A DNA stretch of 64,000 nucleotides, taken from positions 496,001 to 560,000 of the forward strand of contig NZ_CP116005.1 in NCBI RefSeq assembly GCF_027941835.1, read 5' to 3'. This DNA is from Sphingosinicella microcystinivorans (GTDB taxonomy: Bacteria > Pseudomonadota > Alphaproteobacteria > Sphingomonadales > Sphingomonadaceae). This document shows positions 1 through 30,177 of this stretch, one piece after another; the first letter of the stretch is position 1; the number at the start of each line of letters is the position of its first letter. The position numbers and the translations under genes are program-made. The notes below the pieces were generated by a model. It made no database searches. It was not told where the DNA came from and saw only the letters and a list, made by a program, of their open reading frames with translations.

Positions 1-720
1 CAGCCCTATCCGGAGGAGATCAACCGCACGCTGATCGCGCGGCTGGCGACGCTGCATTTCGCGCCGACGCCCGGCGCACGCGTCAACCTCCGCGCCGAGG
101 GCGTGCCGGACGCGGCGATCGCGGTGACGGGCAACACCGTCGTCGATGCGCTGCACCGGACGCTCCGCGACCTGCCCCCGGCGGTGCCCGCCGATCGGCG
201 GCTCATCCTCGCGACGCTGCACCGACGGGAAAACCGCGAGGCGGCGTTCCCGGAGATCATCGGCGCGCTTGCCGCGATCGCGGCGCGCGGCGACGTCGAG
301 GTGCTGCTGCCCCGCCACCCCGGCTGCCCGCCCGGCATCTATGCGCCGCTCGAAGCCTGCCCGGCCGCGCGGCTGGTGCCGCCGATGCCCTACCCCGCGT
401 TCGTCGCCGCGCTCGCCGCCGCGCATCTCGTCGTCACCGATTCGGGCGGCGTGCAGGAGGAAGCCTCCGCGCTCGGCGTGCCGACGCTCGTCGTGCGCGC
501 CCTCACCGAACGGCCCGAAGTGGTCGAGGCGGGCACGGCGCTGGTCGTCGACACGGCGCGCGGCGGCATCCTCGCCGCCGTGACGCGCCTGCTGGACGAC
601 GACGAGGCGCACCGCCGCATGGCGAACGCCTCGACGCGCATCGGAGACGGCAAAGCCGCCGAGCGGATCGCCCGGCGGCTGCATGATGAACTCCACGCCG
701 CGCGGCGCCCGGCTGCCTAG
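1..720 (+). CDS. wecB: UDP-N-acetylglucosamine 2-epimerase (non-hydrolysing), 3' part
   Basis: This is the C-terminal 239 residues of a non-hydrolysing UDP-GlcNAc 2-epimerase; the 5' end lies outside the window, and frame 1 is open from base 1. The enzyme interconverts UDP-GlcNAc and UDP-ManNAc in the cytoplasm, giving precursors for surface polysaccharides. Family landmarks are visible: PYPEEINR near the start, VTGNTVVDAL (about residues 41-50 of the fragment), and the UDP-binding segment TDSGGVQEEA around residues 145-154 followed by the usual GVPTLVVR. The stop codon TAG (718-720) sits inside the left arm of the palindromic element at 719-863. A role in the polysaccharide cluster that starts at 4.1 kb is plausible but inferred from proximity. 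Confidence 0.9.
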   Translation, partial: QPYPEEINRTLIARLATLHFAPTPGARVNLRAEGVPDAAIAVTGNTVVDALHRTLRDLPPAVPADRRLILATLHRRENREAAFPEIIGALAAIAARGDVEVLLPRHPGCPPGIYAPLEACPAARLVPPMPYPAFVAALAAAHLVVTDSGGVQEEASALGVPTLVVRALTERPEVVEAGTALVVDTARGGILAAVTRLLDDDEAHRRMANASTRIGDGKAAERIARRLHDELHAARRPAA

Positions 721-1954: not shown

Positions 1955-3271
1955 CTAGCACGCCACCGCGCCCATGCGCTGCATGAGCGGCAGGAAATCG
2001 GGAAAGCTGGTCGCGATCGGCCGCGCATCGTCCACCACCACCGGCGCCTCTGCATTGAGGCCGAGCACGGCGAAGCTCATCGCGATGCGGTGATCGAGAT
2101 GGCTGGCCACGGTCGCGCCGCCGGGCACCGGCTCCCCGCCGCTGCCGTGGATGACGATGCCGTCCGCCAGTTCCTCGACCGGCACGCCGCAGGCGGCAAG
2201 GCCCGCCGCCATCACCGCGAGACGATCCGATTCCTTGACGCGCAGCTCCTCCAGCCCGCGCATGACGGTCGTGCCGTCGGCGAAGGCCGCCGCGACCATC
2301 AGGATCGGATACTCGTCGATCATCAGCGGCGCGATCGCCGGATCGACCTCCCCGCCCTTCAGCACCGCGTGGTGCACCCGAAGCGCCCCGACCGGCTCGC
2401 CGCCCGCCTCGCCCGTGTCCTCCACCGCCACGTCGAGGCCGAGCATGGCGAGCGCATCGAGGATGCCGGTGCGCGTGGGGTTGAGGCCGACGTTCTCGAT
2501 GACGACCTCGCTGCCCGGCACCGCCAGCGCTGCGACCAACGGGAACGCGGCCGACGAGATGTCTCCCGGCACCGTGATTCGCTGCGGCTTCAGCTCCGCC
2601 TCGCCGCGCACCGAGATGAGCCGCGCGCCGTCCGGCAGCGTCTCGACCGAGAGGTCCGCGCCGAAGCCGCGCAGCATCCGCTCCGAATGGTCGCGCGTCG
2701 GCACGCTCTCGATGACGCGCGTGATGCCCGGTGCGTTGAGCCCGGCGAGCAGCACCGCGGACTTCACCTGCGCCGAGGCCACCGGCAGGCGGTATTCGAT
2801 CGGCAGCGCCGGACAGGCGCCCTCCACCGTCATCGGCAGGCGGTCGCCGTTCCCCGAAAAGCGCGCGCCCATCTGCGACAGCGGCGTGATGATCCGCTGC
2901 ATCGGGCGCTTCGACAGCGAGGCGTCGCCGACGAAGGTCGCGCGAATCGCATGGGACGCGACAAGCCCCGCGAGCAGCCGCGTCGAGGTGCCGCTGTTGC
3001 CCATGTCGAGCACGCCCGCCGGCTGCAGCAGCCCCCCCACGCCGACGCCGTGCACCCGCCAGCGCCCCCCGGCATCCCGCTCCGCGCGCGCGCCCATCGC
3101 CCGCATCGCGGCGGCCGTGGCGTGGACATCCTCGCCTTCGAGCAGGCCGTCGATCACGGTCTCGCCGACGGCGAGCGCGCCCAGCATCAGCGCGCGGTGC
3201 GAGATGGACTTGTCGCCGGGCACGCGCACGCGGCCGGAAAGCGGCCCGGCAGCGCTCAGGGAAAGCGGCAT
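1955..3271 (-). CDS. aroA: 3-phosphoshikimate 1-carboxyvinyltransferase (EPSP synthase)
   Basis: A 438-residue EPSP synthase of the shikimate pathway, which joins phosphoenolpyruvate to shikimate-3-phosphate in the cytoplasm. The substrate loops are clear: [10 protein letters not shown] near residue 18, [10 protein letters not shown] near residue 91, [10 protein letters not shown] near residue 116, and [10 protein letters not shown] near residue 344. Two inside-out alpha/beta domains of the expected length are present. In many alphaproteobacteria aroA is followed by cmk and rpsA; here neither follows, and the gene ends 9 bp from the small membrane protein gene on the opposite strand. It is divergent from the TIGR02300 gene, a pairing common in the class. 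Confidence 0.96.
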
Positions 3272-4019: not shown

Positions 4020-4171
4020 GCCTTCCTCCCACATACGCTTTCATCGCTTTCCGTATCGTCGAGGCAGCCACTCCGCGCAGATCACGGCCTTCCGATTGGG
4101 GACTTGCGTTTGCACGGGGTGCTTGCCGTGTTAGACGCTGCTCCACGAGAGCAGGATTGAAATGGCTCGGA

Positions 4172-5143
4172 ATGAACAGCGAACACCATTCTTATACTGC
4201 CGCGGCAAACGCGGATGATGAAATCGATCTCGTAGAACTTGCAAAAACCTTGTGGGCAGGCCGTAAAACAATCGCGATCTGCCTTCTCGTGCCGATACTC
4301 GCCATTCTGACGTATCTGCATGTAGCAACATACAAGTACGAGGCAGTGTTGGCGGTGACGCCTACCCAGTCGGAAACAAATGGCCTTACCACCAAGATGG
4401 GAAATCTTGGCGGCCTTGCCTCGCTTGCCGGCATAAGCATGCCGCAGGATTCGAGTGCCCTGGCATTTTCGCTGTATCTGGAAGGCGTCTACTCTAGGAG
4501 CCTGGCCAGTGCTCTGTCAAAGCACGAAGATCTGATGCGTGTCATCTTCAAAGACGAATGGAACGAAGGTGCGAAGCGTTGGGAGAAACCTTCAGGAATT
4601 GCGTCCGGCGTCGTCAAATTCATCAAGGCGGGCATGGGTGTTCCGGACACCACGTGGCAGCCCCCCGACGGGGCAAGGTTGCAGGAGTATCTGAAGCGCG
4701 AACTGAGCGTTTCCCAGGACCCGAAATCTCCGCTTGCCATCCTTTCGTTCAAGCACAAGGATCCGGACTTCGCGGTTCATTTGCTCAATGCCATGAATAC
4801 GGAAATGGACGCGCTTTTGCGGGCGAAAGCCTTGGCGCGCGCCAACGGCAACATCGCCTATCTCTCGGAACAGCTTGGCAAGGTGACGATCACAGAACAT
4901 CGGGAAGCGATCGCGCGTTCGCTGAGCGAACAAGAAAAAATCCGGATGTCGGCGAGTTCATCGGCACCCTATGCCGCCGAGCCGTTCGGCACCGCCGCGG
5001 CTTCGCTCAAACCGGTGACCCCCAAGCCGGTTTTATCGTTGTTTCTGGGAATCGTGCTTGGTCTGGTGGGCGGCTCTATTCTGGTCTTCGTTCGTTCGCG
5101 GTTACGCCCATACAATCGAGAATCTTCCGATTCTGAACATTGA
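4172..5143 (+). CDS. Wzz/polysaccharide copolymerase-like chain-length protein
   Basis: A 323-residue inner-membrane protein with the Wzz architecture: a short cytoplasmic N-terminus, a first transmembrane helix at about residues 30-49 (AICLLVPILAILTYLHVA), a long periplasmic part, and a second helix near residues 287-308 (LSLFLGIVLGLVGGSILVFV). The first helix is followed by the usual Y-x-A-x-x-x-V segment. No C-terminal Walker kinase domain is present, so it is closer to Wzz/PCP-1 or a kinase-less PCP-2 than to a BY-kinase. It probably sets polymer length for the neighbouring Wzy. ATG 4172 is chosen over TTG 4157. Its 3' end overlaps the convergent glycosyltransferase gene by 68 bp. Confidence 0.8.
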   Translation: MNSEHHSYTAAANADDEIDLVELAKTLWAGRKTIAICLLVPILAILTYLHVATYKYEAVLAVTPTQSETNGLTTKMGNLGGLASLAGISMPQDSSALAFSLYLEGVYSRSLASALSKHEDLMRVIFKDEWNEGAKRWEKPSGIASGVVKFIKAGMGVPDTTWQPPDGARLQEYLKRELSVSQDPKSPLAILSFKHKDPDFAVHLLNAMNTEMDALLRAKALARANGNIAYLSEQLGKVTITEHREAIARSLSEQEKIRMSASSSAPYAAEPFGTAAASLKPVTPKPVLSLFLGIVLGLVGGSILVFVRSRLRPYNRESSDSEH

Positions 5144-6215
5144 CGTCGAACCGCTCCTCGGCGAGACGCCGGCTCTCGGTACCCATGCGTGCAATGAGGT
5201 CCGGGTTCACCAGAAAGCGGCGCATGGCGGCAGCGAGAGTCTGTGGATCGCGGGGGGGGACCATGAAGCCGTTTTGTCCATCGATCACGGTTTCACGACA
5301 GCCCGGCGCATCGGTGGTCACAACGGGCCGGCCCATGGCCATCGCCTCCTGCGTGCTACGCGGAACACCTTCGCGATAGGACGGCAGCACGAAGACGTGC
5401 GCCCGGGCAAGCCAAGGCTCGACAGAGACGTGACCGGGCCATTCGATCAGCCCTTCGTCGACCCAGGACTGTACGTCGGCATGGGAAATGGCCGCGGGAT
5501 TATCGTCGAGTCCGCCAACCAGCAGAAAGCGTGCATCAGGGTGTGAGGTACGCAGGATTCGGGCCGCATCTATATAATCCACGACGCCCTTGTCCCGAAG
5601 CAGGCGAGCAACGAGAATGAAGGTGACGGGGCCGCGGGGCAACGGCATGATACTCCATTCATTCAAATCGACACCAATCGCTCCGACAAGAGCGGCCTTG
5701 TCTCGAGTGATCAGCTTGCGCGTGACGAACTCCTGCAAATCGTCAGGGTTCAAAAACATGAGGCGGTCCAAACGCACCATGGCAAAGCGTGCCAGTGTGG
5801 AGATTATGCCTTGCAGAAGGCGTCGTTGCCTGCCTTGGCCCGGAGCAACCGTGAAGGCGAAGCCCAGCCCTTCAATGAGGCCATAGCGACGGGGAACCTT
5901 TGCCATCCAGGCTGCAATCGTACCGTATATCACGGGCTTGATAAAATAGCTGAAACAAAGATCGGGCTGATGCCGTCGCAACAGGCGATGCAATTCCAGT
6001 ATCGAAGCCATTTCCTGTAGCGGATTGGTGCCGGCCCGAGCCATTTCGCACTCCACAGGCCGGACACCCATTGCACGCAAGGTTGTACGCGAAATCTCGT
6101 CATGATCGGGCGCAAACGCCAGAACCTCGTGCCCGCGCCGGATCATTTCCGCCATCAAGTGACCCCGGAAATTGATCAGGGACAGGGCGCCGTTGGAGAT
6201 CACGGCAATCTTCAT
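5076..6215 (-). CDS. GT4-type glycosyltransferase (RfaG/EpsD-like)
   Basis: A 379-residue GT-B fold retaining glycosyltransferase. The C-terminal donor-binding domain carries the GT4 E(x)7E signature, Glu282 and Glu290 in REGVPRSTQEAM, followed by GRPVVTTDAPG. The N-terminal acceptor domain starts MKIAVISNG. It is expected to add one sugar to a lipid-linked repeat unit at the cytoplasmic face. Which sugar cannot be told. It is last in the minus-strand run of the polysaccharide cluster, 57 bp after the previous glycosyltransferase gene, and its last 68 bp overlap the end of the wzz-like gene on the other strand. Confidence 0.88.
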   Translation of the reverse strand: MKIAVISNGALSLINFRGHLMAEMIRRGHEVLAFAPDHDEISRTTLRAMGVRPVECEMARAGTNPLQEMASILELHRLLRRHQPDLCFSYFIKPVIYGTIAAWMAKVPRRYGLIEGLGFAFTVAPGQGRQRRLLQGIISTLARFAMVRLDRLMFLNPDDLQEFVTRKLITRDKAALVGAIGVDLNEWSIMPLPRGPVTFILVARLLRDKGVVDYIDAARILRTSHPDARFLLVGGLDDNPAAISHADVQSWVDEGLIEWPGHVSVEPWLARAHVFVLPSYREGVPRSTQEAMAMGRPVVTTDAPGCRETVIDGQNGFMVPPRDPQTLAAAMRRFLVNPDLIARMGTESRRLAEERFDVNVQNRKILDCMGVTANERRPE

Positions 6216-6272
6216 ACAGCGTATCCTGTCAGGCCTCGAACTTGAGGCGGTAGGCAATCGGCCGGAGAGGTT

Positions 6273-7424
6273 TCAAACGACATTCTCACGTTTCGACGTT
6301 TCGTGTGACGTTCCAAACCAGACGGTGCGGTAGCTGTCCACCATGCGTTCGATGGAAAAGCGCTCTGCGACGCGTCGTCGGGCCGCCTCCCGACGGGTAG
6401 GGCGGGCTGGGCCGGTCTGCTCGCGCAAACCCTTGGCGATGGCGTCCGCGAGGGCCTCCGGGTCGCGCGGCGGCACGATCCAGCCTGTATCTCCAATGAT
6501 CTCCGCAGCGTCGCCCACGTCTGTCGAAACACAGGGAGTTCCACAGGCCATGGCCTCGGCGAGTACGTTGGGGAAGGCTTCACTGCGCGAGGACATGACA
6601 TGCAGATCGAGGGCGTTCATCACTATGGGCACGTCGCTCCTGCGGCCGAGCAGCCTGACATGCTCTCCAAGACCCATGTCCGAAATCAATCCGGCCAATA
6701 CCTCATTGTCCGCATCCATCCCGCTGCCGATCAGAAGGCAAACGGGTGCCTCGCCATGCGTCTTCAGAACGTTCAAGGCCTGCAACAGGTTGCGGTGGTC
6801 CTTTAGTGGATCATGGCGGGCGACAAAGCCGATCACGGACGCGTCGATACCAAGTCCCAGATCGGCGCGCAGCGCAGCGCCCGCATCAGGATCGGGCTGA
6901 AACACGTTCAGATCATAGCCATTGGGGATCACGTGCATTCGCCCCTCGTCATATCCGAGCCGGGAGTGGACCTCCCGGCTTTTCCGGGCGCAGCAGACGA
7001 TCACGCGGGGAATGAAACGAGACAGGAGGGCACAAAGTTTCGCGACCAGTATGGTGCTGCGCCGACTTTCATTCGGCACGAGCGTGGTGTGGTGGATGCT
7101 CCAGTTGACGTTCCGAATTCCAGCCAACCGCGCACCGACCCCACCCAGAAGATCGGCATGATACATCCACGTCTGCACGACATCCGGGCGCACCTGTCTC
7201 AACAACCGCCACAATCGCCACAGACTGGATAGTTTGATCCGCCCTCTCGGCATATCCAGACAGGTGACAGCGACTCCATGAGCTTCAAGTAACGGCCCAT
7301 ACTTGCCCGCATCCATGAGCGAGACGACATGATGCCGGTCTATCGGATCATGCCTGCACAACCGGTACAGAACGGCCTCGGCGCCACCGTCATCAAGGTC
7401 CGTGATCAGGTGAAGTACAATCAT
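6273..7424 (-). CDS. GT4-type glycosyltransferase
   Basis: A 383-residue GT-B glycosyltransferase. The glycine-rich N-terminal loop DLDDGGAEAVL is typical for GT4 proteins such as those of exopolysaccharide loci, and the C-terminal signature is SEAFPNVLAEAMACGTP, with both glutamates of E(x)7E present. The start ATG at 7424 is preferred over an upstream TTG at 7436 because a GTGAG stretch precedes it. The gene follows the polymerase gene by 29 bp and precedes the next glycosyltransferase, so it belongs to the same transcription unit. Donor and acceptor are unknown. Confidence 0.88.
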   Translation of the reverse strand: MIVLHLITDLDDGGAEAVLYRLCRHDPIDRHHVVSLMDAGKYGPLLEAHGVAVTCLDMPRGRIKLSSLWRLWRLLRQVRPDVVQTWMYHADLLGGVGARLAGIRNVNWSIHHTTLVPNESRRSTILVAKLCALLSRFIPRVIVCCARKSREVHSRLGYDEGRMHVIPNGYDLNVFQPDPDAGAALRADLGLGIDASVIGFVARHDPLKDHRNLLQALNVLKTHGEAPVCLLIGSGMDADNEVLAGLISDMGLGEHVRLLGRRSDVPIVMNALDLHVMSSRSEAFPNVLAEAMACGTPCVSTDVGDAAEIIGDTGWIVPPRDPEALADAIAKGLREQTGPARPTRREAARRRVAERFSIERMVDSYRTVWFGTSHETSKRENVV

Positions 7425-7453
7425 CTCACGTCTCAAATTCTAGAGGAACTGCT

Positions 7454-8485
7454 CTAGATTACCCTGAGCCAGAACAGCCACTGCAAACTGGCGTACGGAA
7501 TAAACAGAAGCGTGATCAGACTGACCGGTTTTGATGGCCACTTATTCATGGAAATGACCAGAGAAGGGAATGCGGCTGCAATAAATCTCGTTGAATATCC
7601 TCCGGTAAAGGCATTAACAATTACAATTGATAATATAATTAATGCATAGCGCCCATCCGCAGACGCCATAATATCTTTCCATCTGAAAAGACAAAAAAAC
7701 CACATCAGAATCCAAAAAAATAAATAGTAGAAAGTACTACTCATATCGTGGTATTCTGCGCGCCGATCCCCGATTGCCCCCAACACCGCCTCTCGCAAAG
7801 GACCAACCAATATAGCAATTAAAAATCCAGTTAAACAGAGCATAATAAGATTTTTAAATCTTGAATCAAAAAATTTATTCACAGAAAAATGCATAATCGC
7901 AAAAAGGAAAATAGATGTGTGTATTGATGCGCAAACCGCATACGCGAAAAATGTTATTACTTTCCCTCTTTGACCTGTCCAAAAGAAAGATATTATAAAT
8001 ATTGCAAATGCAATCCGGAGCTGGGAAAATGCATAATCTATGATCAATGGATTCATAAGAAGAAGAGTATATATCCAACCAGCTCGCGATGCTATCTCAA
8101 AAGAAATCCTCCAAATAACCATTGTAGTAATCAGAAAAAATATTTGATCTACACTTAACCCAATTGATCTGTTCAAATATGATAAGAACATATTCCACAG
8201 AAATTCTGCGGAAAAATACATAATTAAACTATATTCTGATATATAGTCAGTCGGCAAATCAAATCCTGTGACCATCCTTTCATATACGGAACGGTCTGTC
8301 ATTTGATGACCATTCACATATGAAAATATTTCAGGCCACCCCGGCAACTGAAAAGCTATAGAAAATAAAAATGAAAGAAATAATAGTGAAATCGGTTTTC
8401 TTTTTACAAGAATAGAAAATGAGTTAATAAAATTTGATTTTATATTTCCCTTTTCAATAAAATATTGATCAGCAGGTAAATTCAT
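7454..8485 (-). CDS. Wzy/EpsG-like polysaccharide polymerase
   Basis: A 343-residue integral membrane protein with roughly 8-10 hydrophobic helices and little homology that can be read by eye, as usual for Wzy. The topology, and features such as IDYAFSQLRIAFAIFI and CASIHTSIFLFA, resemble the EpsG family, in which a periplasmic loop Arg and a His-Thr/Ser pair recur. It would polymerise undecaprenyl-linked repeat units on the periplasmic side. Base composition is striking, about one third GC against two thirds around it, which points to recent transfer. ATG 8485 overlaps the stop of the upstream glycosyltransferase gene as ATGA, implying translational coupling. Confidence 0.78.
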   Translation of the reverse strand: MNLPADQYFIEKGNIKSNFINSFSILVKRKPISLLFLSFLFSIAFQLPGWPEIFSYVNGHQMTDRSVYERMVTGFDLPTDYISEYSLIMYFSAEFLWNMFLSYLNRSIGLSVDQIFFLITTMVIWRISFEIASRAGWIYTLLLMNPLIIDYAFSQLRIAFAIFIISFFWTGQRGKVITFFAYAVCASIHTSIFLFAIMHFSVNKFFDSRFKNLIMLCLTGFLIAILVGPLREAVLGAIGDRRAEYHDMSSTFYYLFFWILMWFFCLFRWKDIMASADGRYALIILSIVIVNAFTGGYSTRFIAAAFPSLVISMNKWPSKPVSLITLLFIPYASLQWLFWLRVI

Positions 8486-9597
8486 TGCCGTGCCGCACAT
8501 AAATCTAAACTAGCTTCGTATATTTCAATTATTTTCTCAGGGCGAAAGTCAGCTACTCTCTTAAGCACATCGGGGGAAGCGACTTCATCTAATGCTTCCG
8601 CTAGCGCCGTCTCTAGCGCCTCTACATCCCCTACAGGAACCAACCTCCCCCAACGCCCACCTTCTAATATCTCTCTTGGACCATTTCGGCAGTCGGTACT
8701 CACTATGCGTGCGCCGCATGCCATGGCCTGAATCAGACTGTTCGGAAAGCCTTCCGTCCTGGACGAGAGCACATAGAGATCACATGCGGCCATCCAGCCG
8801 AACGGGTTAGATTGAAACCCCGCCAACTCTACAGAATCATTCAAACCCAGCTCTTCAATCCTCTGTTCCAACTCGGGCCGGAGCGGACCTTCGCCAAGAA
8901 TCAGTAATCGGCCATCACGGCTCGTCTTCAGGCGCGCAAAAGCATCGAGTAAAGTTGCATAGTCCTTCTCCGGAACCAAACGCCCAACAGCAAGCAGTAT
9001 AGGAGGCTCACCCGGTTGGAGCCAAGGATGGCGTGGACGCTGCTCTGCCATACGTTGTATCTCGGGGACCGCCACAGGATTTGGAATCGCAGTCACGAGG
9101 CGTGAATCTAGGCAGAAGTCGACGACCAGTTCCATCGCGACACCTTGGGAAACAGCGATAACGCCATCTGCGTAAGGATAAAGGAGACGCATCAGCCAAT
9201 GCATCGTGGTTGTGGCACGATTACCAACAGCACCGGAGGGACTGCTACGCTCACTTACCACCAAGCGCGTTCTCACCCCGGCCAACTTACGCGCAAGAAT
9301 TGCGACAATATTCGCATGATTCAACGCCGAGAGCATCACGTGCGGACGTTCCCTACTCAAGTAGCGAATCAACGGTAACAAACTGGTCAACATCCTGCTG
9401 CGGTTGAGGTCGATCACATTTACGTGTGCAGAAACTTCGGACCGATAAGGACCTTCCGCCTTCGTGAGCACCAGATCGACCCGATGACCGCGTGCCGCAA
9501 AACCATTCGCCAGCGTCACCATCACCCGCTCCGCGCCGCCGCCTTCCAACGACGGCAGAAAGATCGCGATATGGCGAGGTTGCCCGAAATTAGCCAT
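8482..9597 (-). CDS. GT4-type glycosyltransferase with E-to-Q in the E(x)7E motif
   Basis: A 371-residue GT-B glycosyltransferase. The N-terminal loop reads LPSLEGGGAERVM and the C-terminal donor site reads RTEGFPNSLIQAMACG. The first Glu of the E(x)7E signature is kept, but the second is Gln. This change occurs in some active GT4 enzymes, so loss of activity should not be assumed. The gene overlaps the upstream ATP-grasp gene by 8 bp and the downstream polymerase gene by 4 bp, so these three proteins are probably made together. The sugar transferred cannot be predicted. Confidence 0.87.
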   Translation of the reverse strand: MANFGQPRHIAIFLPSLEGGGAERVMVTLANGFAARGHRVDLVLTKAEGPYRSEVSAHVNVIDLNRSRMLTSLLPLIRYLSRERPHVMLSALNHANIVAILARKLAGVRTRLVVSERSSPSGAVGNRATTTMHWLMRLLYPYADGVIAVSQGVAMELVVDFCLDSRLVTAIPNPVAVPEIQRMAEQRPRHPWLQPGEPPILLAVGRLVPEKDYATLLDAFARLKTSRDGRLLILGEGPLRPELEQRIEELGLNDSVELAGFQSNPFGWMAACDLYVLSSRTEGFPNSLIQAMACGARIVSTDCRNGPREILEGGRWGRLVPVGDVEALETALAEALDEVASPDVLKRVADFRPEKIIEIYEASLDLCAARQ

Positions 9598-10624
9598 GAA
9601 CCACGGGCTTCCGGCAGAGAGTTACAAGGACGTCCTCGATCATGAACTGTTCCGGTTTAACCGGCTTTTCGTGCCAGTTCAGAGCCTCATCCCAGAAACC
9701 GGGGCATTTTCTGTAAGCATCCGCCGAGAACGCATAACTGATCTCCACGACAAGCCATGCGTTCTGGCTGCGTACAAAATCAAATGCACAGGATTGTGAT
9801 CGCATTCGAGATGAAATCTCGAATGCTTTTTCGACACACTCCAAGGGAATCTGATCTTCTTCATAAACGATCGCGCCGCTGCCGGAAGCGCGGAAATCCC
9901 CGCTCCGCACGAGTCTTTTTATGGCGAAGGCTCTTTTGCCAATCACGACAACACGGATGTCGAAGTGATTTTCAGGAATAAAATCCTGAAAATAAACGTA
10001 GTTTTTTTCCGGCAGACGATTTCTGTTCGTCTCGTGCGGAAGCAGGCCTCTGATAAAACCCCGGCCGATGTCGATGAACGACCGCACCGTCCGATCACGC
10101 CTGAATTGCCACAGCCGTTCCTGCAAAGCGTACCAGCGTGAATTCGACCATCCCTTCCCGAAGGAGCGCCGGATCAGCCGTCGCGCCTCCGACCTTCGAC
10201 GTACCAGTCGGACGTTCTGGGAACCCGCTCCGCCCCGAAGCTTCCAGACCAGAGGCAAGGGCACATTCTCAACCCATCGCAGGGCAGTGTCCCTGTCATA
10301 GAACACATGGCTGGGAATAAGCGGGGCGCCGATGGCTTCCAGCAGATATTTCTGTCCTACCTTGTCGTCGTAATGCCATGATGAGGCTGTGCTGGGGAAG
10401 ACCACAAGACCCATCGCCTCTGCCGAAGCGATCAGTTGCCGCGCAAAGAGCGCCGCCTGGTAATCGTGATGCTCCCAATGCCAGAGCAACGCTCGGCACC
10501 CTTGCAACTGGCCGATAATATCGGTCGCAAAGCAATCCACGATTTTAAAAGGGATATCGTTTTCTCGACAGTAGGACACCCATTCTGCAAAGAAAGCGCC
10601 CTTTTTCGTGTGAATAGCGATCAC
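9590..10624 (-). CDS. ATP-grasp (RimK/TupA-like) amide ligase in polysaccharide cluster
   Basis: A 344-residue ATP-grasp protein. Segments that fit the fold, in order: a pre-ATP-grasp domain (residues 1-85), DDKVGQKYLLE, the ATP-binding lysine in PLVWKLRGGAGSQNV, the hinge YFQDFIPENHFDIRVV with IGKRAFAIKR, and the metal-binding strand WLVVEISYAF, where the usual Glu-x-Asn is Glu-Ile-Ser. ATP-grasp ligases activate a carboxylate as acyl phosphate and join it to an amine. Those in capsule loci often attach amino acids or build peptides. GTG 10624 overlaps the CapA stop as GTGA. The substrate is unknown; with ugd and CapA nearby, aminoacylation of a uronic acid or oligoglutamate synthesis is possible. 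Confidence 0.75.
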   Translation of the reverse strand: MIAIHTKKGAFFAEWVSYCRENDIPFKIVDCFATDIIGQLQGCRALLWHWEHHDYQAALFARQLIASAEAMGLVVFPSTASSWHYDDKVGQKYLLEAIGAPLIPSHVFYDRDTALRWVENVPLPLVWKLRGGAGSQNVRLVRRRSEARRLIRRSFGKGWSNSRWYALQERLWQFRRDRTVRSFIDIGRGFIRGLLPHETNRNRLPEKNYVYFQDFIPENHFDIRVVVIGKRAFAIKRLVRSGDFRASGSGAIVYEEDQIPLECVEKAFEISSRMRSQSCAFDFVRSQNAWLVVEISYAFSADAYRKCPGFWDEALNWHEKPVKPEQFMIEDVLVTLCRKPVVHG

Positions 10625-11796
10625 GCGCGTTCAGCCTCCTGAAAGTTCTCCAGCGCGCTGACGACGAGCTCCTGATGTGACGCACAGCGCATCAGGTTCA
10701 GGCGATGCAGTCGACGCGTCGGCGAGACCACGAGATCACGCATGAATTTCCATCGCATCAGCCTGCGGAAGCCCCGGAAACGAACGGGTGACGACAAGTC
10801 GATCATGGCCTGAGCCTGCTTGTTCCTGACGAATGCCTTCCATGCATCGAGCCACTTCTGCGGGTGATTTTCCAGCTGGTCCCGCATCTCTTCGATCCGG
10901 GCAAGAAAATCATCACGTGCATGGCCTTGCAATAATTGCATTCCACCCTTTGATGCGGCTTGGTGATATGGATGCAGTTCGATCCGGATATACTCTAGAC
11001 TGGTATCGTTGAAGTCCAGATCAAGACAGGCAAAATATCCTGATTCCCATTCCGGTGGAGGAACGGTGGAATCGAAGATCAGATTGCCAAGACTATAGAC
11101 GATAGGCTTCCCTTTATAGACCTCATAAGCGCCGGGCACGTGCGGGTGATGTCCCATGATGGCATCGGCGCCAATATCGACCAGGTAGTGAAAGAGCCTG
11201 CGCAGGCCGGGCCTTGGCCACGGGAAATATTCATTTCCACCATGAACACAGATGACGATGGCATCGGCCTGTGTACGCTCCTGCATGATCAGTGGCGTTA
11301 GGCTGATCGGGTCCAGCAACGCCGCACCCGCCTGACCGTCATCGGAGATGTTGAACTCCCGCTCCGCAACGGAGAATACGGAAACACGTCGTTCCTTGAG
11401 TTTGATCCGCAGGGGACTTTCGGCGGACAATCGGTCGGGTCCGGCGCCGACATATCTGATGCCTCGCGCATCCAAAGCCGTAAGTGTTTGCGCCAGGCCA
11501 TCTCTACCATAGTCGAAAATATGGTTGTTGGCCAAACAGACAGCATCGATTCCAGCCTGGTTCAAAGCTTGCAGGGCCTCTGGAGCGATATGCATTGCCG
11601 GGCCAATTTTTCGGATAGCGCTGCCCTCAACACGTAAGGGGGCCTCCAAGTTGACCATCGTGAAATCTGCTTGATCTATGAGCTTCAGGGCGGTTCCGAA
11701 TATATCCTCGCCTCTATCAAATATCAGCTTTTCGTATGGTCCGCGCGGTGCGAAATCTCCCCCGAACAGCAGTCGAACAGGGCTTTGCCTATCCAT
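10621..11796 (-). CDS. CapA/PgsA-type metallophosphatase-fold protein
   Basis: A 391-residue CapA-family (poly-gamma-glutamate capsule synthesis, PF09587) protein. Calcineurin-like metal-site motifs are all visible: GGDFAP near residue 12, NLEAPL near 49, NNHIFDYG near 92, HGGNEYF near 186, GHHPHVPGAYE near 216 and YSLGNLIFD near 235. There is no signal peptide or membrane anchor from the chosen ATG at 11796, so this copy looks cytoplasmic, unlike membrane-anchored PgsA. A good AAGGAA Shine-Dalgarno precedes the ATG. It overlaps the flippase gene by 8 bp and the ATP-grasp gene by 4 bp, so it most likely works with the ligase. The biochemical role of CapA proteins is still unsettled. Confidence 0.85.
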   Translation of the reverse strand: MDRQSPVRLLFGGDFAPRGPYEKLIFDRGEDIFGTALKLIDQADFTMVNLEAPLRVEGSAIRKIGPAMHIAPEALQALNQAGIDAVCLANNHIFDYGRDGLAQTLTALDARGIRYVGAGPDRLSAESPLRIKLKERRVSVFSVAEREFNISDDGQAGAALLDPISLTPLIMQERTQADAIVICVHGGNEYFPWPRPGLRRLFHYLVDIGADAIMGHHPHVPGAYEVYKGKPIVYSLGNLIFDSTVPPPEWESGYFACLDLDFNDTSLEYIRIELHPYHQAASKGGMQLLQGHARDDFLARIEEMRDQLENHPQKWLDAWKAFVRNKQAQAMIDLSSPVRFRGFRRLMRWKFMRDLVVSPTRRLHRLNLMRCASHQELVVSALENFQEAERA

Positions 11797-13075
11797 TCGC
11801 AATTTCCTTTCGCTTCCGGTCGAAGTCGACAACGCACCAAGTAAAAGCCAGAATTGATAACGCAATCATGATAGAGCTGGATACTGAGAACCAAACAATA
11901 GCTGTCAGGGCGCTACCCGATAGTGAATAGGCGCTCAGTATGGACAGGGAGCGCACAATCAGCAGCAACAGGTTGAAGCCGAGCAAAAGGTTCTGACGTC
12001 CGATGACCGGGATACTGCGCGTCACAGGCACATTGATGATCATCATCGCAATCCATAGAGACATCCAGCGTGCGTAGTATCCGGCTTCCCTCCACTCCTC
12101 ACCAAAAACAAATGCGAAGATGGCAGGGGAAAACCATGCCGCACCAACGATGGCTGGGGCCAACGCCGACAGGGCCGCGGTCGTTTTCAGCAACAGCGGC
12201 GCAAGCGCTTTGCCTTCACGTGCCAATTCGGCAAAACGCACATAAAGTACGTTTCCCATCGCGTTTCCGATGAGATTCGACGGGAGGTTCAGCACGCTAC
12301 GGGTCAACGTATAGAGCCCTGCCGCCACCGGAGAGAACAAGGCGGCCAGCAGGATCACCGGAACGGATTGCGAGGCAGCATTCAGAACATCGGTCGGCAT
12401 CCGGTAGAGTGGGAAGTCGCTGTGCGCTTTCAAAAGGTTCATGCCACTTGGACTTGTGGACGATGGCATCGTGCGCAAATGCTTGCCGATACCAATACGC
12501 AACAGGACAGCCTGCATGAATGGCGCCAACGCGCTGACCGCGACCAGCACGATCGCCGCCGGAGTGACCAAGCCTCCAAGAATGCGCGCAAGGTTGGTCA
12601 GAAAGGATTGAGCGACGGCCACGAACCCGATCAGTCGGAAGACACCATACCGCGCTGCGCGAAAATCCATAATATCCTGAAGTGCCGTAAAGAACAGCGC
12701 CACGGGCAGGAACCAGACCAGAAGTCCAAGTTCCCCGATCCCCATGAGTATGGCGAACGGTTCCCGAAAACCCAGCAAGAGAAGCGCCACTATGCCTGAG
12801 ACAATCCCGGCGAGGTAAATGCACAGACGAACAAGATCCCGAACTTCCGCTTCCGAGTCAGCCACGACGATGGCCATGGGATAACGCAGCGCAGCAATCG
12901 GAGCGCATATGCTGACCACTCCAAGGAACACACCCTGGATACCGAAGGTCTCGGGTGTGTAGATGCGCGTGATCAGCGGGGAAAACGCAAGAACAATCAC
13001 CTGCGCTGCGGCCGTCCCACTGGTTACGGCCGCGAGATTACGCAAAAGTGGTGAACGGAGCAGGCGCTGCATCAT
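11789..13075 (-). CDS. Oligosaccharide flippase (Wzx/MOP superfamily)
   Basis: A 428-residue membrane protein with about 12 predicted helices. Its start (LLRNLAAVTSGTAAAQVIVLAFSPLITRIYTPETFG by pattern) is that of the polysaccharide-biosynthesis MOP/Wzx family: a helix with Ser/Gly/Thr followed by R-x-Y-x-P-E-x-F-G. It should carry the undecaprenyl-linked repeat unit across the inner membrane. ATG 13075 has only a weak ribosome-binding site. The gene ends 8 bp inside the CapA gene. With the Wzy-like and Wzz-like proteins it completes a Wzx/Wzy-type assembly line; the initiating sugar-phosphate transferase is not in the window. Confidence 0.9.
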   Translation of the reverse strand: MMQRLLRSPLLRNLAAVTSGTAAAQVIVLAFSPLITRIYTPETFGIQGVFLGVVSICAPIAALRYPMAIVVADSEAEVRDLVRLCIYLAGIVSGIVALLLLGFREPFAILMGIGELGLLVWFLPVALFFTALQDIMDFRAARYGVFRLIGFVAVAQSFLTNLARILGGLVTPAAIVLVAVSALAPFMQAVLLRIGIGKHLRTMPSSTSPSGMNLLKAHSDFPLYRMPTDVLNAASQSVPVILLAALFSPVAAGLYTLTRSVLNLPSNLIGNAMGNVLYVRFAELAREGKALAPLLLKTTAALSALAPAIVGAAWFSPAIFAFVFGEEWREAGYYARWMSLWIAMMIINVPVTRSIPVIGRQNLLLGFNLLLLIVRSLSILSAYSLSGSALTAIVWFSVSSSIMIALSILAFTWCVVDFDRKRKEIANG

Positions 13076-13168: not shown

Positions 13169-14470
13169 TCAGCGTCCGATCGACGCGTAACTCAGCCCTC
13201 TGCGGAGAGGCTCCTCCACCGGATACACGTTCCGCAGGTCCACGAACACCGGCGCTTTCAATCCGTCCCGCACCCGCCCCAGATCCAGCGCGCGGAACTC
13301 ATTCCACTCCGTGAGCAGCACCGCCGCATCCGCGCCGTCCAGCGCCGCATAGGCGTCGCCGCACATCTCCACGCCGGGCAGCAGCGCCGCAGCCGCCCTC
13401 ATCCCTTCCGGATCGAACGCCTTCACTTTCGCCCCCGCCGCCTGCAGCGCCGGGATGATGACGAGGCTTGGTGCCTCGCGCATGTCGTCGGTGTTGGGTT
13501 TGAAGGTGAGGCCGAGGATGCCGATGGTCTTGCCGTCCACTGATCCGCCGCAGGCGGCGATGATGCGGTCGGCCATCGCGCGCTTGCGCTCGTCGTTCAC
13601 CTTCACGGTCGCCGCCACGATCTGCAGGGCGACATCGTTGTCCTCGGCGGTCTTGAGGAGCGCGAGCGTGTCCTTGGGGAAGCAGGAGCCGCCATAGCCG
13701 GGGCCCGGGTGCAGGAACTTCGGGCCGATGCGCTTGTCGAGGCCGATGCCCTTCGCCACACCCTGCACGTCGGCGCCGACCTTCTCGCAGAGGTCGGCGA
13801 TCTCGTTGATGAAGCTGATCTTCACGGCGAGGAATGCGTTCGCGGCGTATTTGATGACCTCGGCGGTCGGCCGGTCGGCGAACAGGATCGGCACCTCGCG
13901 CAAGCTGAGCGGACGGTAGATCGCCTTCAGCACCTCGCGTGCATGGTCGTCGGCGACGCCGCAGACGACGCGGTCCGGGCGCATGAAATCCTCGATCGCC
14001 GAGCCTTCGCGCAGGAATTCCGGGTTCGAGGCGACGCTGATCGCCTTTTCGGGCGCCGCCTCGCGCGCGATGCGCTCCACTTCCGTGGCCGTCCCCACCG
14101 GCACCGTCGACTTGTTGACGATGACGCAGGTCTCGGGCGCGGCCTCCGCGATCTGGCGCGCGGCGGCGTAGACGTAGGAGAGGTCGGCATGGCCGTCGCC
14201 GCGTCGGCTCGGCGTGCCGACGGCGATGAACACCGCGTCGGCATCCTTCACGCCCGCGGCGAGGTCGGTCGTGAAGGTCAGGCGCCCCGCTTTCACGTTG
14301 CGCGCCACCAGATCGTCGAGACCGGGCTCGAAGATGGGGATTTCGCCCGCCTTCAGCCTTTCGATGACGGCGGCGTTGAGATCGACGCACGTGACGCTGT
14401 GACCGAACTCGGAGAAACAGGCGCCGGAAACGAGCCCCACATAGCCCGTCCCGATCATCGCAATACGCAT
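13169..14470 (-). CDS. ugd: UDP-glucose 6-dehydrogenase
   Basis: A 433-residue enzyme that oxidises UDP-glucose twice with NAD+ to UDP-glucuronate. The Rossmann start MIGTGYVGLVSGACFSE and the catalytic-cysteine segment GYGGSCFPKDT (about residues 255-265) are intact, as is NPEFLREGSA. GC content is that of the host, unlike the flippase gene 93 bp downstream, so it marks the right-hand limit of the low-GC island. Being co-directional and upstream, it can supply glucuronate to the cluster. An AGGGG Shine-Dalgarno precedes ATG 14470. Confidence 0.95.
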   Translation of the reverse strand: MRIAMIGTGYVGLVSGACFSEFGHSVTCVDLNAAVIERLKAGEIPIFEPGLDDLVARNVKAGRLTFTTDLAAGVKDADAVFIAVGTPSRRGDGHADLSYVYAAARQIAEAAPETCVIVNKSTVPVGTATEVERIAREAAPEKAISVASNPEFLREGSAIEDFMRPDRVVCGVADDHAREVLKAIYRPLSLREVPILFADRPTAEVIKYAANAFLAVKISFINEIADLCEKVGADVQGVAKGIGLDKRIGPKFLHPGPGYGGSCFPKDTLALLKTAEDNDVALQIVAATVKVNDERKRAMADRIIAACGGSVDGKTIGILGLTFKPNTDDMREAPSLVIIPALQAAGAKVKAFDPEGMRAAAALLPGVEMCGDAYAALDGADAAVLLTEWNEFRALDLGRVRDGLKAPVFVDLRNVYPVEEPLRRGLSYASIGR

Positions 14471-28377: not shown

Positions 28378-30177
28378 TTAGTAGCCCGCCGCCTGCCCGT
28401 CCTTCCGCATTTCGGAGGCGCCGCGATAGACGCCGGTGCCCGGATCGCGCCAGATCGCCTGATAGCCGCCATAGGGGCCGACCGCGTAGCGCACCGTGTG
28501 GCCGCGCGCGCGAAGCGCCTCGGCGACCGCCTGCGGCACGCCCGATTCGATCTCGACGACGCCGCCGTCCGTCATCGGCGCGCCGCCTTCGGGGTCGGTG
28601 GAGCCGCCGTGGTGGAAACGCGCCGCGTCGCCCGCCGCCTGCACGCCCATGCCGAAGTCGACGATGTTGACGACGATCTGCGCGTGGCCCTGCGGCTGCA
28701 TGGCGCCGCCCATCAGGCCGAAGCTCATCAGCGGCTCGCCGTCCTTCGTGAGGAAAGCGGGGATGATGGTGTGGAACGGGCGCTTGCCGGGCGCGTAGGC
28801 GTTCGGATGCTTCGCATCGAGGCTGAACTGTGCGCCGCGGTCCTGAAACATGAAGCCGAGCGTGCGGCCGCTGCCGTCGTCCGGCACCAGCCCCGAGCCC
28901 ATGCCGCGATAGTTGGACTGGATGAGGCTCACCATCATGCCGTCCTTGTCCGCCACGGCCATGTAGATCGTGTCCTTGCCCGCGCCTTCGATGGCAAGGC
29001 CGGGCATGTCCGTCTTCGCGGCGCGGCCCATGTCGATCGCCGCGCGCAGTTTCGCCGCGCGGTCCTTCGAGAGCAGCTCGGCGAGCGGGATCTTCGCGAA
29101 GGCGGGGTCCGCATAGAAGCGCGCGCGGTCGGCGAAGGCGCGCTTCTTCGCCTCGACGAACACGTGCCAGAAGTCGGGCGAAGCGCGGCCCATCGCCTTC
29201 AGGTCATAGCCTTCGAGGATATTGAGCATTTGCAGCGCGGCGATGCCCTGCCCGTTCGGCGGCAGCTCCCACACGTCGTAGCCGCGATAATTGACCGAGA
29301 CGGGATCGACCCATTCGGACCTATGCGCGGCGAAATCCGCCAACCGGTGCGGCGCGCCGATGCGGCGGAAATACCCGTCCATCGCCCGCGCGAGGCTACC
29401 CTTGTAGAAGGCGTCGCGTCCGCCTTCCGCGATCTCGATCAGCGTCAGCGCGAGGTCGGGATTCCGGAAGACCTCGCCTTCCTTCGGCGCGCGGCCGCCG
29501 GGCATGTAGACCCGGCGCATGTTCCCGATCTCCTCGATGACGCCCGCCTTCGCCAGCGTCTCGAAGCTCGCCGTGCCGCGCGCCCAGTACTCCGCGATCA
29601 GCTCGCTGACCGGGAAGCCCTGCTGCGCGTAGCGGATCGCGGGGGCGAGCACGCGCCGCATCGGCAGCCTGCCGAACTTCGCGTGCATCTCGAACCAGCC
29701 GTCGACCGCGCCCGGAACCGTGACGGAAAGCGCACCCCAATCGGGAATCGTGCCGTCCGCGTCCTGCGCGCCGCGCGGCGTCTTCGCGATGCGCGCCTTG
29801 AGCGCGGCAAGGCTCTGCCCCGAAGGCGCGCGGCCCGAGGCGTTGAGGCCGTGGAGCTTCCCCGTCTTCGGGTCCCGGATGATCGCGAACAGGTCGCCGC
29901 CGATGCCGTTCCCGGTCGGCTCCATCAGGCCGAGCGCGGCGTTCGCCGCGATGGCCGCATCGACGGCGCTGCCGCCCTCCTTCAGCACGTCGAGCGCGAC
30001 CTGTGTCGCGAGCGGCTGGCTGGTCGCGGCCATCCCGTTCAGCCCGAGCACGGCAGACCGCGTGGCGTGCGGCGCGCCCGAATAGCGGTCGCCCTGATCC
30101 TTCAGCACGGGCTCAGCCGCGAGGCCGGCCGAGGACAGCATGACGGCACCCATCGCAAGTCCGGCAAGTCGCTTCAT
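28378..30177 (-). CDS. ggt: Gamma-glutamyltransferase family protein
   Basis: A 599-residue Ntn-hydrolase with a signal peptide (residues 1-20, ending SAGLA-AEP). The conserved GGSAVDAAIAANAALGLMEP and GNGIGGDLFAI are present. The autoprocessing site reads KDTIYMAVADKDG with the candidate nucleophile Thr403; classical enzymes have TTH at this place, so this belongs to the divergent bacterial group where Thr-Ile-Tyr replaces it. It would act in the periplasm on glutathione or other gamma-glutamyl compounds. gloB follows upstream on the same strand, so a glutathione-related context is evident. Confidence 0.88.
   Translation of the reverse strand: MKRLAGLAMGAVMLSSAGLAAEPVLKDQGDRYSGAPHATRSAVLGLNGMAATSQPLATQVALDVLKEGGSAVDAAIAANAALGLMEPTGNGIGGDLFAIIRDPKTGKLHGLNASGRAPSGQSLAALKARIAKTPRGAQDADGTIPDWGALSVTVPGAVDGWFEMHAKFGRLPMRRVLAPAIRYAQQGFPVSELIAEYWARGTASFETLAKAGVIEEIGNMRRVYMPGGRAPKEGEVFRNPDLALTLIEIAEGGRDAFYKGSLARAMDGYFRRIGAPHRLADFAAHRSEWVDPVSVNYRGYDVWELPPNGQGIAALQMLNILEGYDLKAMGRASPDFWHVFVEAKKRAFADRARFYADPAFAKIPLAELLSKDRAAKLRAAIDMGRAAKTDMPGLAIEGAGKDTIYMAVADKDGMMVSLIQSNYRGMGSGLVPDDGSGRTLGFMFQDRGAQFSLDAKHPNAYAPGKRPFHTIIPAFLTKDGEPLMSFGLMGGAMQPQGHAQIVVNIVDFGMGVQAAGDAARFHHGGSTDPEGGAPMTDGGVVEIESGVPQAVAEALRARGHTVRYAVGPYGGYQAIWRDPGTGVYRGASEMRKDGQAAGY

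What the first reader, a model, noticed from the sequence alone, without database searches (positions are those of the whole stretch)
8482..11796. CapA + ATP-grasp ligase coupled to glycosyltransferase and polymerase: possible amino-acid- or peptide-bearing polyuronate
A RimK/TupA-like ATP-grasp enzyme, a cytoplasmic CapA-family protein, a GT4 and a Wzy are linked by 4-8 bp overlaps, with ugd upstream. ATP-grasp enzymes form amide bonds on carboxylates, ugd makes glucuronate (a carboxylate sugar), and CapA relatives take part in poly-gamma-glutamate export. In bacilli, teichuronopeptide combines polyglucuronate and polyglutamate. A Gram-negative Wzx/Wzy system that builds a peptidyl or aminoacyl repeat unit before flipping would be new or little described. 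The ATP-grasp metal motif is Glu-x-Ser rather than Glu-x-Asn, and CapA lacks a membrane anchor, so the step may be cytoplasmic.
Basis: inference. Interest (0 to 1): 0.7.

Follow-up and report, generated by a model that had tools for sequence, protein, structure and literature searches.

The report
Predicted amino-acid-decorated surface sugar locus
A bacterium carries a swappable surface-sugar gene set in which two paired enzymes probably attach an amino acid to an acidic sugar, and perhaps flip its handedness, before the sugar chain is exported; the same pair turns up in several unrelated bacterial groups, so it offers candidate genes for polysaccharides of this kind.

The parts
13169..14470 (-). 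ugd, UDP-glucose 6-dehydrogenase type: fixed edge of the locus; one of two full-length nucleotide-sugar dehydrogenases over cut-off in the genome
   Evidence: in the same place in congeners G085, G150, G201
11789..13075 (-). wzx, MOP-type flippase
   Evidence: PF13440 62.6 bits, cut-off 23
10621..11796 (-). CapA (PGA_cap) protein, soluble, MslH-like calcineurin fold; proposed tailoring enzyme (epimerase or hydrolase)
9590..10624 (-). RimK/LysX-like ATP-grasp ligase (GTG start), proposed amino acid-uronate amide ligase
8482..9597 (-). GT4 glycosyltransferase coupled to the ligase
   Evidence: PF13692 and others; adjacent GT4 co-varies with the ligase, r 0.79 in 36 loci
7454..8500 (-). wzy-like membrane protein (polymerase by position and weak EpsG-like kinship)
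   Evidence: no Pfam hit itself; L021 member of its cluster matches EpsG at 8.7e-6, under the cut-off
6273..7436 (-). GT4 glycosyltransferase
5076..6257 (-). GT4 glycosyltransferase
4157..5143 (+). Wzz chain-length regulator
   Evidence: PF02706 44.8 bits, cut-off 25.5

Best explanation
A serotype-type surface polysaccharide locus. Glycosyltransferases build a lipid-linked repeat (about four sugars if each GT4 adds one to a first sugar) that holds a uronic acid. The ATP-grasp ligase activates the uronic carboxylate with ATP and joins it to the amino group of a free amino acid, leaving an N-acyl amino acid with a free alpha-carboxylate; the coupled GT4 then probably extends the modified acceptor. 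CapA, a soluble metal enzyme of the MslH fold, acts on the new substituent, most likely epimerising its alpha-carbon (L to D), and is optional. Wzx flips the unit and the wzy-like protein polymerises it under Wzz control. Shown here: gene order, families, predicted folds, conserved linkage, swapping of the locus. Inferred: substrates, order of reactions, CapA's reaction, the polymerase role.
Against: No biochemistry on any member is known to me; the polymer of the window's organism is unknown. All four PGA_cap hits in the fold search are MslH entries, so the high Z shows family kinship, not the reaction. The CapA metal site differs from MslH: His261 of MslH falls on Gly187/Asn188 (alignments; five relatives have His there), and His217 of an H-x-H pair (31 of 31) is Gly293 in MslH. 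NCBIfam's MslH model is far under its cut-off (79.1 of 700). The ligase's second metal residue is Ser, not Asn. A sugar dehydrogenase or WecB-like cluster was found in only 26 of 85 loci; L010 and L011 have no dehydrogenase beside the ligase, though their genomes have full-length ones elsewhere. 58 of 85 loci have no CapA within 3 kb upstream (some contigs end early), and G253 has a ligase relative and two CapA genes that are not in its ligase locus. The permutations ignore shared descent.
Confidence: 0.58

Rival explanations
1. CapA is a phosphatase: the ligase attaches a phosphorylated amine or amino acid and CapA removes the phosphate, as Cj1438C and Cj1435 do with serinol-phosphate in Campylobacter jejuni capsule.
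Confidence: 0.15
2. The ligase activates an amino acid or hydroxy acid and N-acylates an amino sugar instead of amidating a uronate.
Confidence: 0.17
3. One reading: a teichuronopeptide-like polyuronate with peptide or polyglutamate chains, CapA taking part in export.
For: CapA family and ugd nearby; tandem ligases in 6 of 85 loci, four in L027.
Against: One ligase here, three GT4s, no polyglutamate synthase among annotated neighbours, CapA without anchor, ugd is a flank.
Confidence: 0.05
4. Chance neighbours: CapA or the ligase serve something other than the polysaccharide.
For: CapA occurs in 71 of 298 family genomes, of which only 4 have a ligase match; 8 of 85 ligase loci show no annotated polysaccharide cluster.
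Against: CapA within 150 bp in 18 of 85 loci; the sole CapA of G000, G189 and G210 lies in the cluster.
Confidence: 0.05

Closest known systems
LysX/ArgX/RimK ATP-grasp ligases
   Different: 17-22% identity in the fold alignment; Glu-x-Ser for Glu-x-Asn; TIGR00768 far under cut-off; sits in polysaccharide loci
Cj1438C, TupA-like amidoligase of C. jejuni capsule (PMC11800379, passages)
   Same: ATP-grasp enzyme amidating a uronic acid before the next sugar is added; a partner enzyme then removes a group
   Different: Different ATP-grasp family; uses amine phosphates; part of a GT2 fusion protein
MslH, lasso peptide epimerase (PMC10406935, passages)
   Different: Positions of His261 and Gly293 differ; not over the MslH model's cut-off; context is a polysaccharide
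CapA/PgsA of poly-gamma-glutamate synthesis (recalled)
   Same: Same Pfam family; works next to an amide ligase
   Different: No membrane anchor here; no polyglutamate ligase among annotated neighbours
Amino-acid-decorated polysaccharides of Microbulbifer, Vibrio alginolyticus, Colwellia
   Same: Expected product type: amides on uronic acids are stated for Microbulbifer and Vibrio; the Colwellia passages say decorated with Thr or Ala
   Different: The passages I read name no biosynthetic genes; kinship with this locus untested

Membership tests
RimK/LysX-type ATP-grasp ligases | RimK-like ATP-grasp domain PF08443 over cut-off | tested here: met
   32.9 bits, cut-off 21; 35 of 38 aligned relatives match at E 0.001
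RimK/LysX-type ATP-grasp ligases | NCBIfam TIGR00768 RimK family cut-off | tested here: not met
   55.1 bits, cut-off 143.4
RimK/LysX-type ATP-grasp ligases | whole-chain fold | tested here: met
RimK/LysX-type ATP-grasp ligases | Glu-x-Asn metal pair | tested here: not met
   Ser in 90 of 96, Asn in 3; RimK has E-V-N in the alignment
RimK/LysX-type ATP-grasp ligases | amide ligase activity on amino acids | not testable with these tools
   needs an enzyme assay
TupA-like ATP-grasp | TupA-like Pfam domain (accession recalled as PF14305) | tested here: not met
   only PF08443 at E 0.01
PGA_cap (CapA) family | PF09587 over cut-off with its conserved motifs | tested here: met
   202.8 bits, cut-off 27; motif residues 31 of 31
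Poly-gamma-glutamate synthase system | membrane-anchored CapA | tested here: not met
   no hydrophobic segment, domain begins near the start
Poly-gamma-glutamate synthase system | CapB/CapC genes beside CapA | tested here: not met
   none among annotated neighbours; rest of the genome not searched for them
MslH-type epimerase | NCBIfam NF038314 cut-off | tested here: not met
   79.1 bits, cut-off 700
MslH-type epimerase | catalytic dyads and Ca ligands | tested here: inconclusive
   7 of 8 residues have counterparts; His261 does not in the window
MslH-type epimerase | epimerase activity | not testable with these tools
   needs an enzyme assay
Wzx/Wzy locus | Wzx flippase and Wzz | tested here: met
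   PF13440 and PF02706 over cut-off
Wzx/Wzy locus | Wzy polymerase | tested here: inconclusive
   no Pfam hit; weak EpsG kinship in its cluster, under cut-off

The most novel reading that the evidence does not exclude
CapA (PGA_cap) proteins are in general metal-dependent epimerases of N-acyl amino acids with a free alpha-carboxylate. MslH acts on a peptide C-terminus, PgsA/CapA would act on gamma-linked glutamate, and the soluble CapA here on an amino acid just amide-linked to a uronic acid. That would explain D-Ala and D-Ser on polysaccharides, the mixed D/L make-up of polyglutamate (recalled), and why CapA keeps joining amide ligases yet is optional.
Probability: 0.27. Interest if true: 0.78.

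Novelty: new variant of a known kind. Interest (0 to 1): 0.52.

Why it matters
Amino acids on acidic polysaccharides are known by chemistry (ice-active Colwellia polymers, a cosmetic Vibrio polymer), but the passages I read name no genes for them. This ligase family gives a testable gene set found in several phyla, and a soluble CapA on which the unclear chemistry of the CapA/PgsA family could be settled.

Tried and rejected
MurA-type acceptor idea (lactyl carboxylate): the EPSP synthase-family gene at 1955-3271 is one of two in the genome, so taken as housekeeping; rejected for the window, though the distant relative L013 has accessory MurA/MurB-like genes. ugd as proof of glucuronate: rejected as specific evidence after comparing congeners. 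Plasmids: no tblastn match to the ligase. Phylum sample: 1 of 398, the own genome, at E 1e-30; family sample: 7 of 298 at E 1e-10, own included, so the family is rare and patchy. Initiating transferase, export and ligase families elsewhere in the genome did not settle whether the polymer is O-antigen or exopolysaccharide. Paper searches bearing on the pair: 5 papers; 21, 20 listed; 129, 15 listed; 0; 24, 12 listed; 103, 12 listed; 1,093, 8 listed; on MslH and PgsA: 42, 100. I saw passages, not whole papers, of PMC12419801, PMC4000134, PMC11800379, PMC10406935, PMC3210612, PMC3726653, PMC2824669 and PMC5852497, and the outline with abstract, section 2.4 and passages of PMC4663550; the others only as listings. 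PMC4000134 lists an ATP-grasp amino acyl ligase in a Clostridium sugar locus; no CapA gene in the passage seen.

Full report
1. What is in the sequence. On the minus strand the window holds ugd (14470-13169), wzx (13075-11789), CapA (11796-10621), an ATP-grasp ligase (10624-9590), a GT4 (9597-8482), a wzy-like membrane protein (8500-7454) and two more GT4s (7436-6273, 6257-5076); wzz lies on the plus strand at 4157-5143. Overlaps are 8, 4 and 8 bases from wzx to the first GT4, and 19 or, with the ATG at 8485, 4 bases into the wzy-like gene. The ORF tool starts CapA at 11865 (TTG); 27-29 of 31 full-length sequences have no counterpart of those extra residues (one of the 31 is a duplicate), so 11796 is the better start.

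2. A swapped-in locus. G+C from 4 to 13 kb is 0.42-0.61, against mostly 0.64-0.72 around it. In three congeners (G085, G150, G201; G242 and G277, both incomplete, gave no ugd match) ugd keeps its two neighbours on the far side (94-96% and 97-98% identical proteins), while the fetched near side has no tblastn match at 1e-15 to the window's CapA, ligase, wzx or wzy-like gene; G085 and G201 show only distant GT4 and wzz matches of 34-39%. None of these congeners has a ligase match at E 1e-10. So ugd is the fixed edge of a variable, O-antigen-like locus. The best-scoring dehydrogenase hits of G189, G147 and G210, similar in score to the window's ugd, lie far from their ligase clusters.

3. Relatives. 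The ligase is rare: 7 of 298 genomes of the family, 1 of 398 of the phylum sample; in the species collection 535 stretches matched the pattern, 502 were confirmed, and the best 80 were kept. I used 85 distinct loci: those 80 less 2 duplicates (L018, L019), 6, and the window. A few come from one metagenome bin (for example L069, L072, L076) and were not merged, and some contigs end close to the ligase. CapA stands within 150 bp upstream in 18 of 85 (Pseudomonadota, Bacteroidota, Chlorobiota, Campylobacterota, Ignavibacteriota), 9 by a 4-base overlap, and within 3 kb in 27 of 85. Two of the 18 are read as two frames (L025, L059). Glycosyltransferase clusters are present in 73 of 85 loci and in 27 of the 29 that hold any CapA; flippase clusters in 26, Wzy-like clusters in 26 (lower bounds); 8 loci show no annotated polysaccharide cluster. 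Clusters were named from single members. L009 and L010 keep the order wzx-CapA-ligase-GT4-membrane-type gene-GT4, and L011 and L017 the same without CapA; the fifth gene has no Pfam name in L010.

6. Co-variation. Distances of the ligase track those of the adjacent GT4 (r 0.79, 36 loci) more than another GT4 (0.36, 63 loci; in the same 30 loci 0.80 and 0.65), and those of CapA (0.67, 25 loci); 0 of 999 permutations reached each. Shared descent is not removed by this test, and within the same loci the margin over another GT4 is modest.

7. Known chemistry. GalNAcA6(D-Ala) in Microbulbifer and a mannuronoyl-L-alanine in Pseudoalteromonas (PMC3210612 passages); D-Ala and D-Ser amides on GalA in Vibrio alginolyticus (PMC4663550; in section 2.4 the D form rests on chromatography and shifts); Thr and Ala on Colwellia polymers (PMC5852497 passages). 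A TupA-like ATP-grasp domain amidates GlcA in C. jejuni capsule and Cj1435 then removes a phosphate (PMC11800379 passages). So the product class is known, one enzyme class for it is known, and this is a second candidate class with an unexplained partner.

8. Verdict. Observation confirmed; interpretation trimmed to one amino acid on a uronate of a mixed repeat, with CapA as a soluble tailoring enzyme. Nothing here was shown by experiment.

Noticed in passing
L027:7909-12087: Four ATP-grasp ligases in tandem after a flippase gene; L036, L054, L064, L066 and L084 have two. They may build short peptides or modify several uronates.
   Followed up: partly
L093:8643-9989 and 10 other loci (cluster 16): A DUF362 protein of about 450 aa (one member annotated) directly before the ligase in 8 of 85 loci, in the slot where CapA stands elsewhere.
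   Followed up: partly
L063, L073, L078, L079, L089, L090, L053, L072: An asparagine synthase-like amidotransferase cluster directly before the ligase in 8 of 85 loci, in six of these with CapA a little further upstream.
   Followed up: partly
L013:9197-13680: A distant ATP-grasp relative followed by MurA-like, MurB-like and GT4 genes; genome G009 has three PF00275 hits, one of them here. The acceptor there may be a lactyl-ether sugar.
   Followed up: partly
L095:9079-9990: A ThiF-family protein next to the ligase.
   Followed up: no
L108:15614-16720, reaching into window 1-720: wecB, UDP-GlcNAc 2-epimerase over cut-off, at the far side of aroA from the cluster; may supply ManNAc.
   Followed up: partly
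window 28378-30177: Gamma-glutamyltranspeptidase (PF01019), outside the cluster.
   Followed up: no
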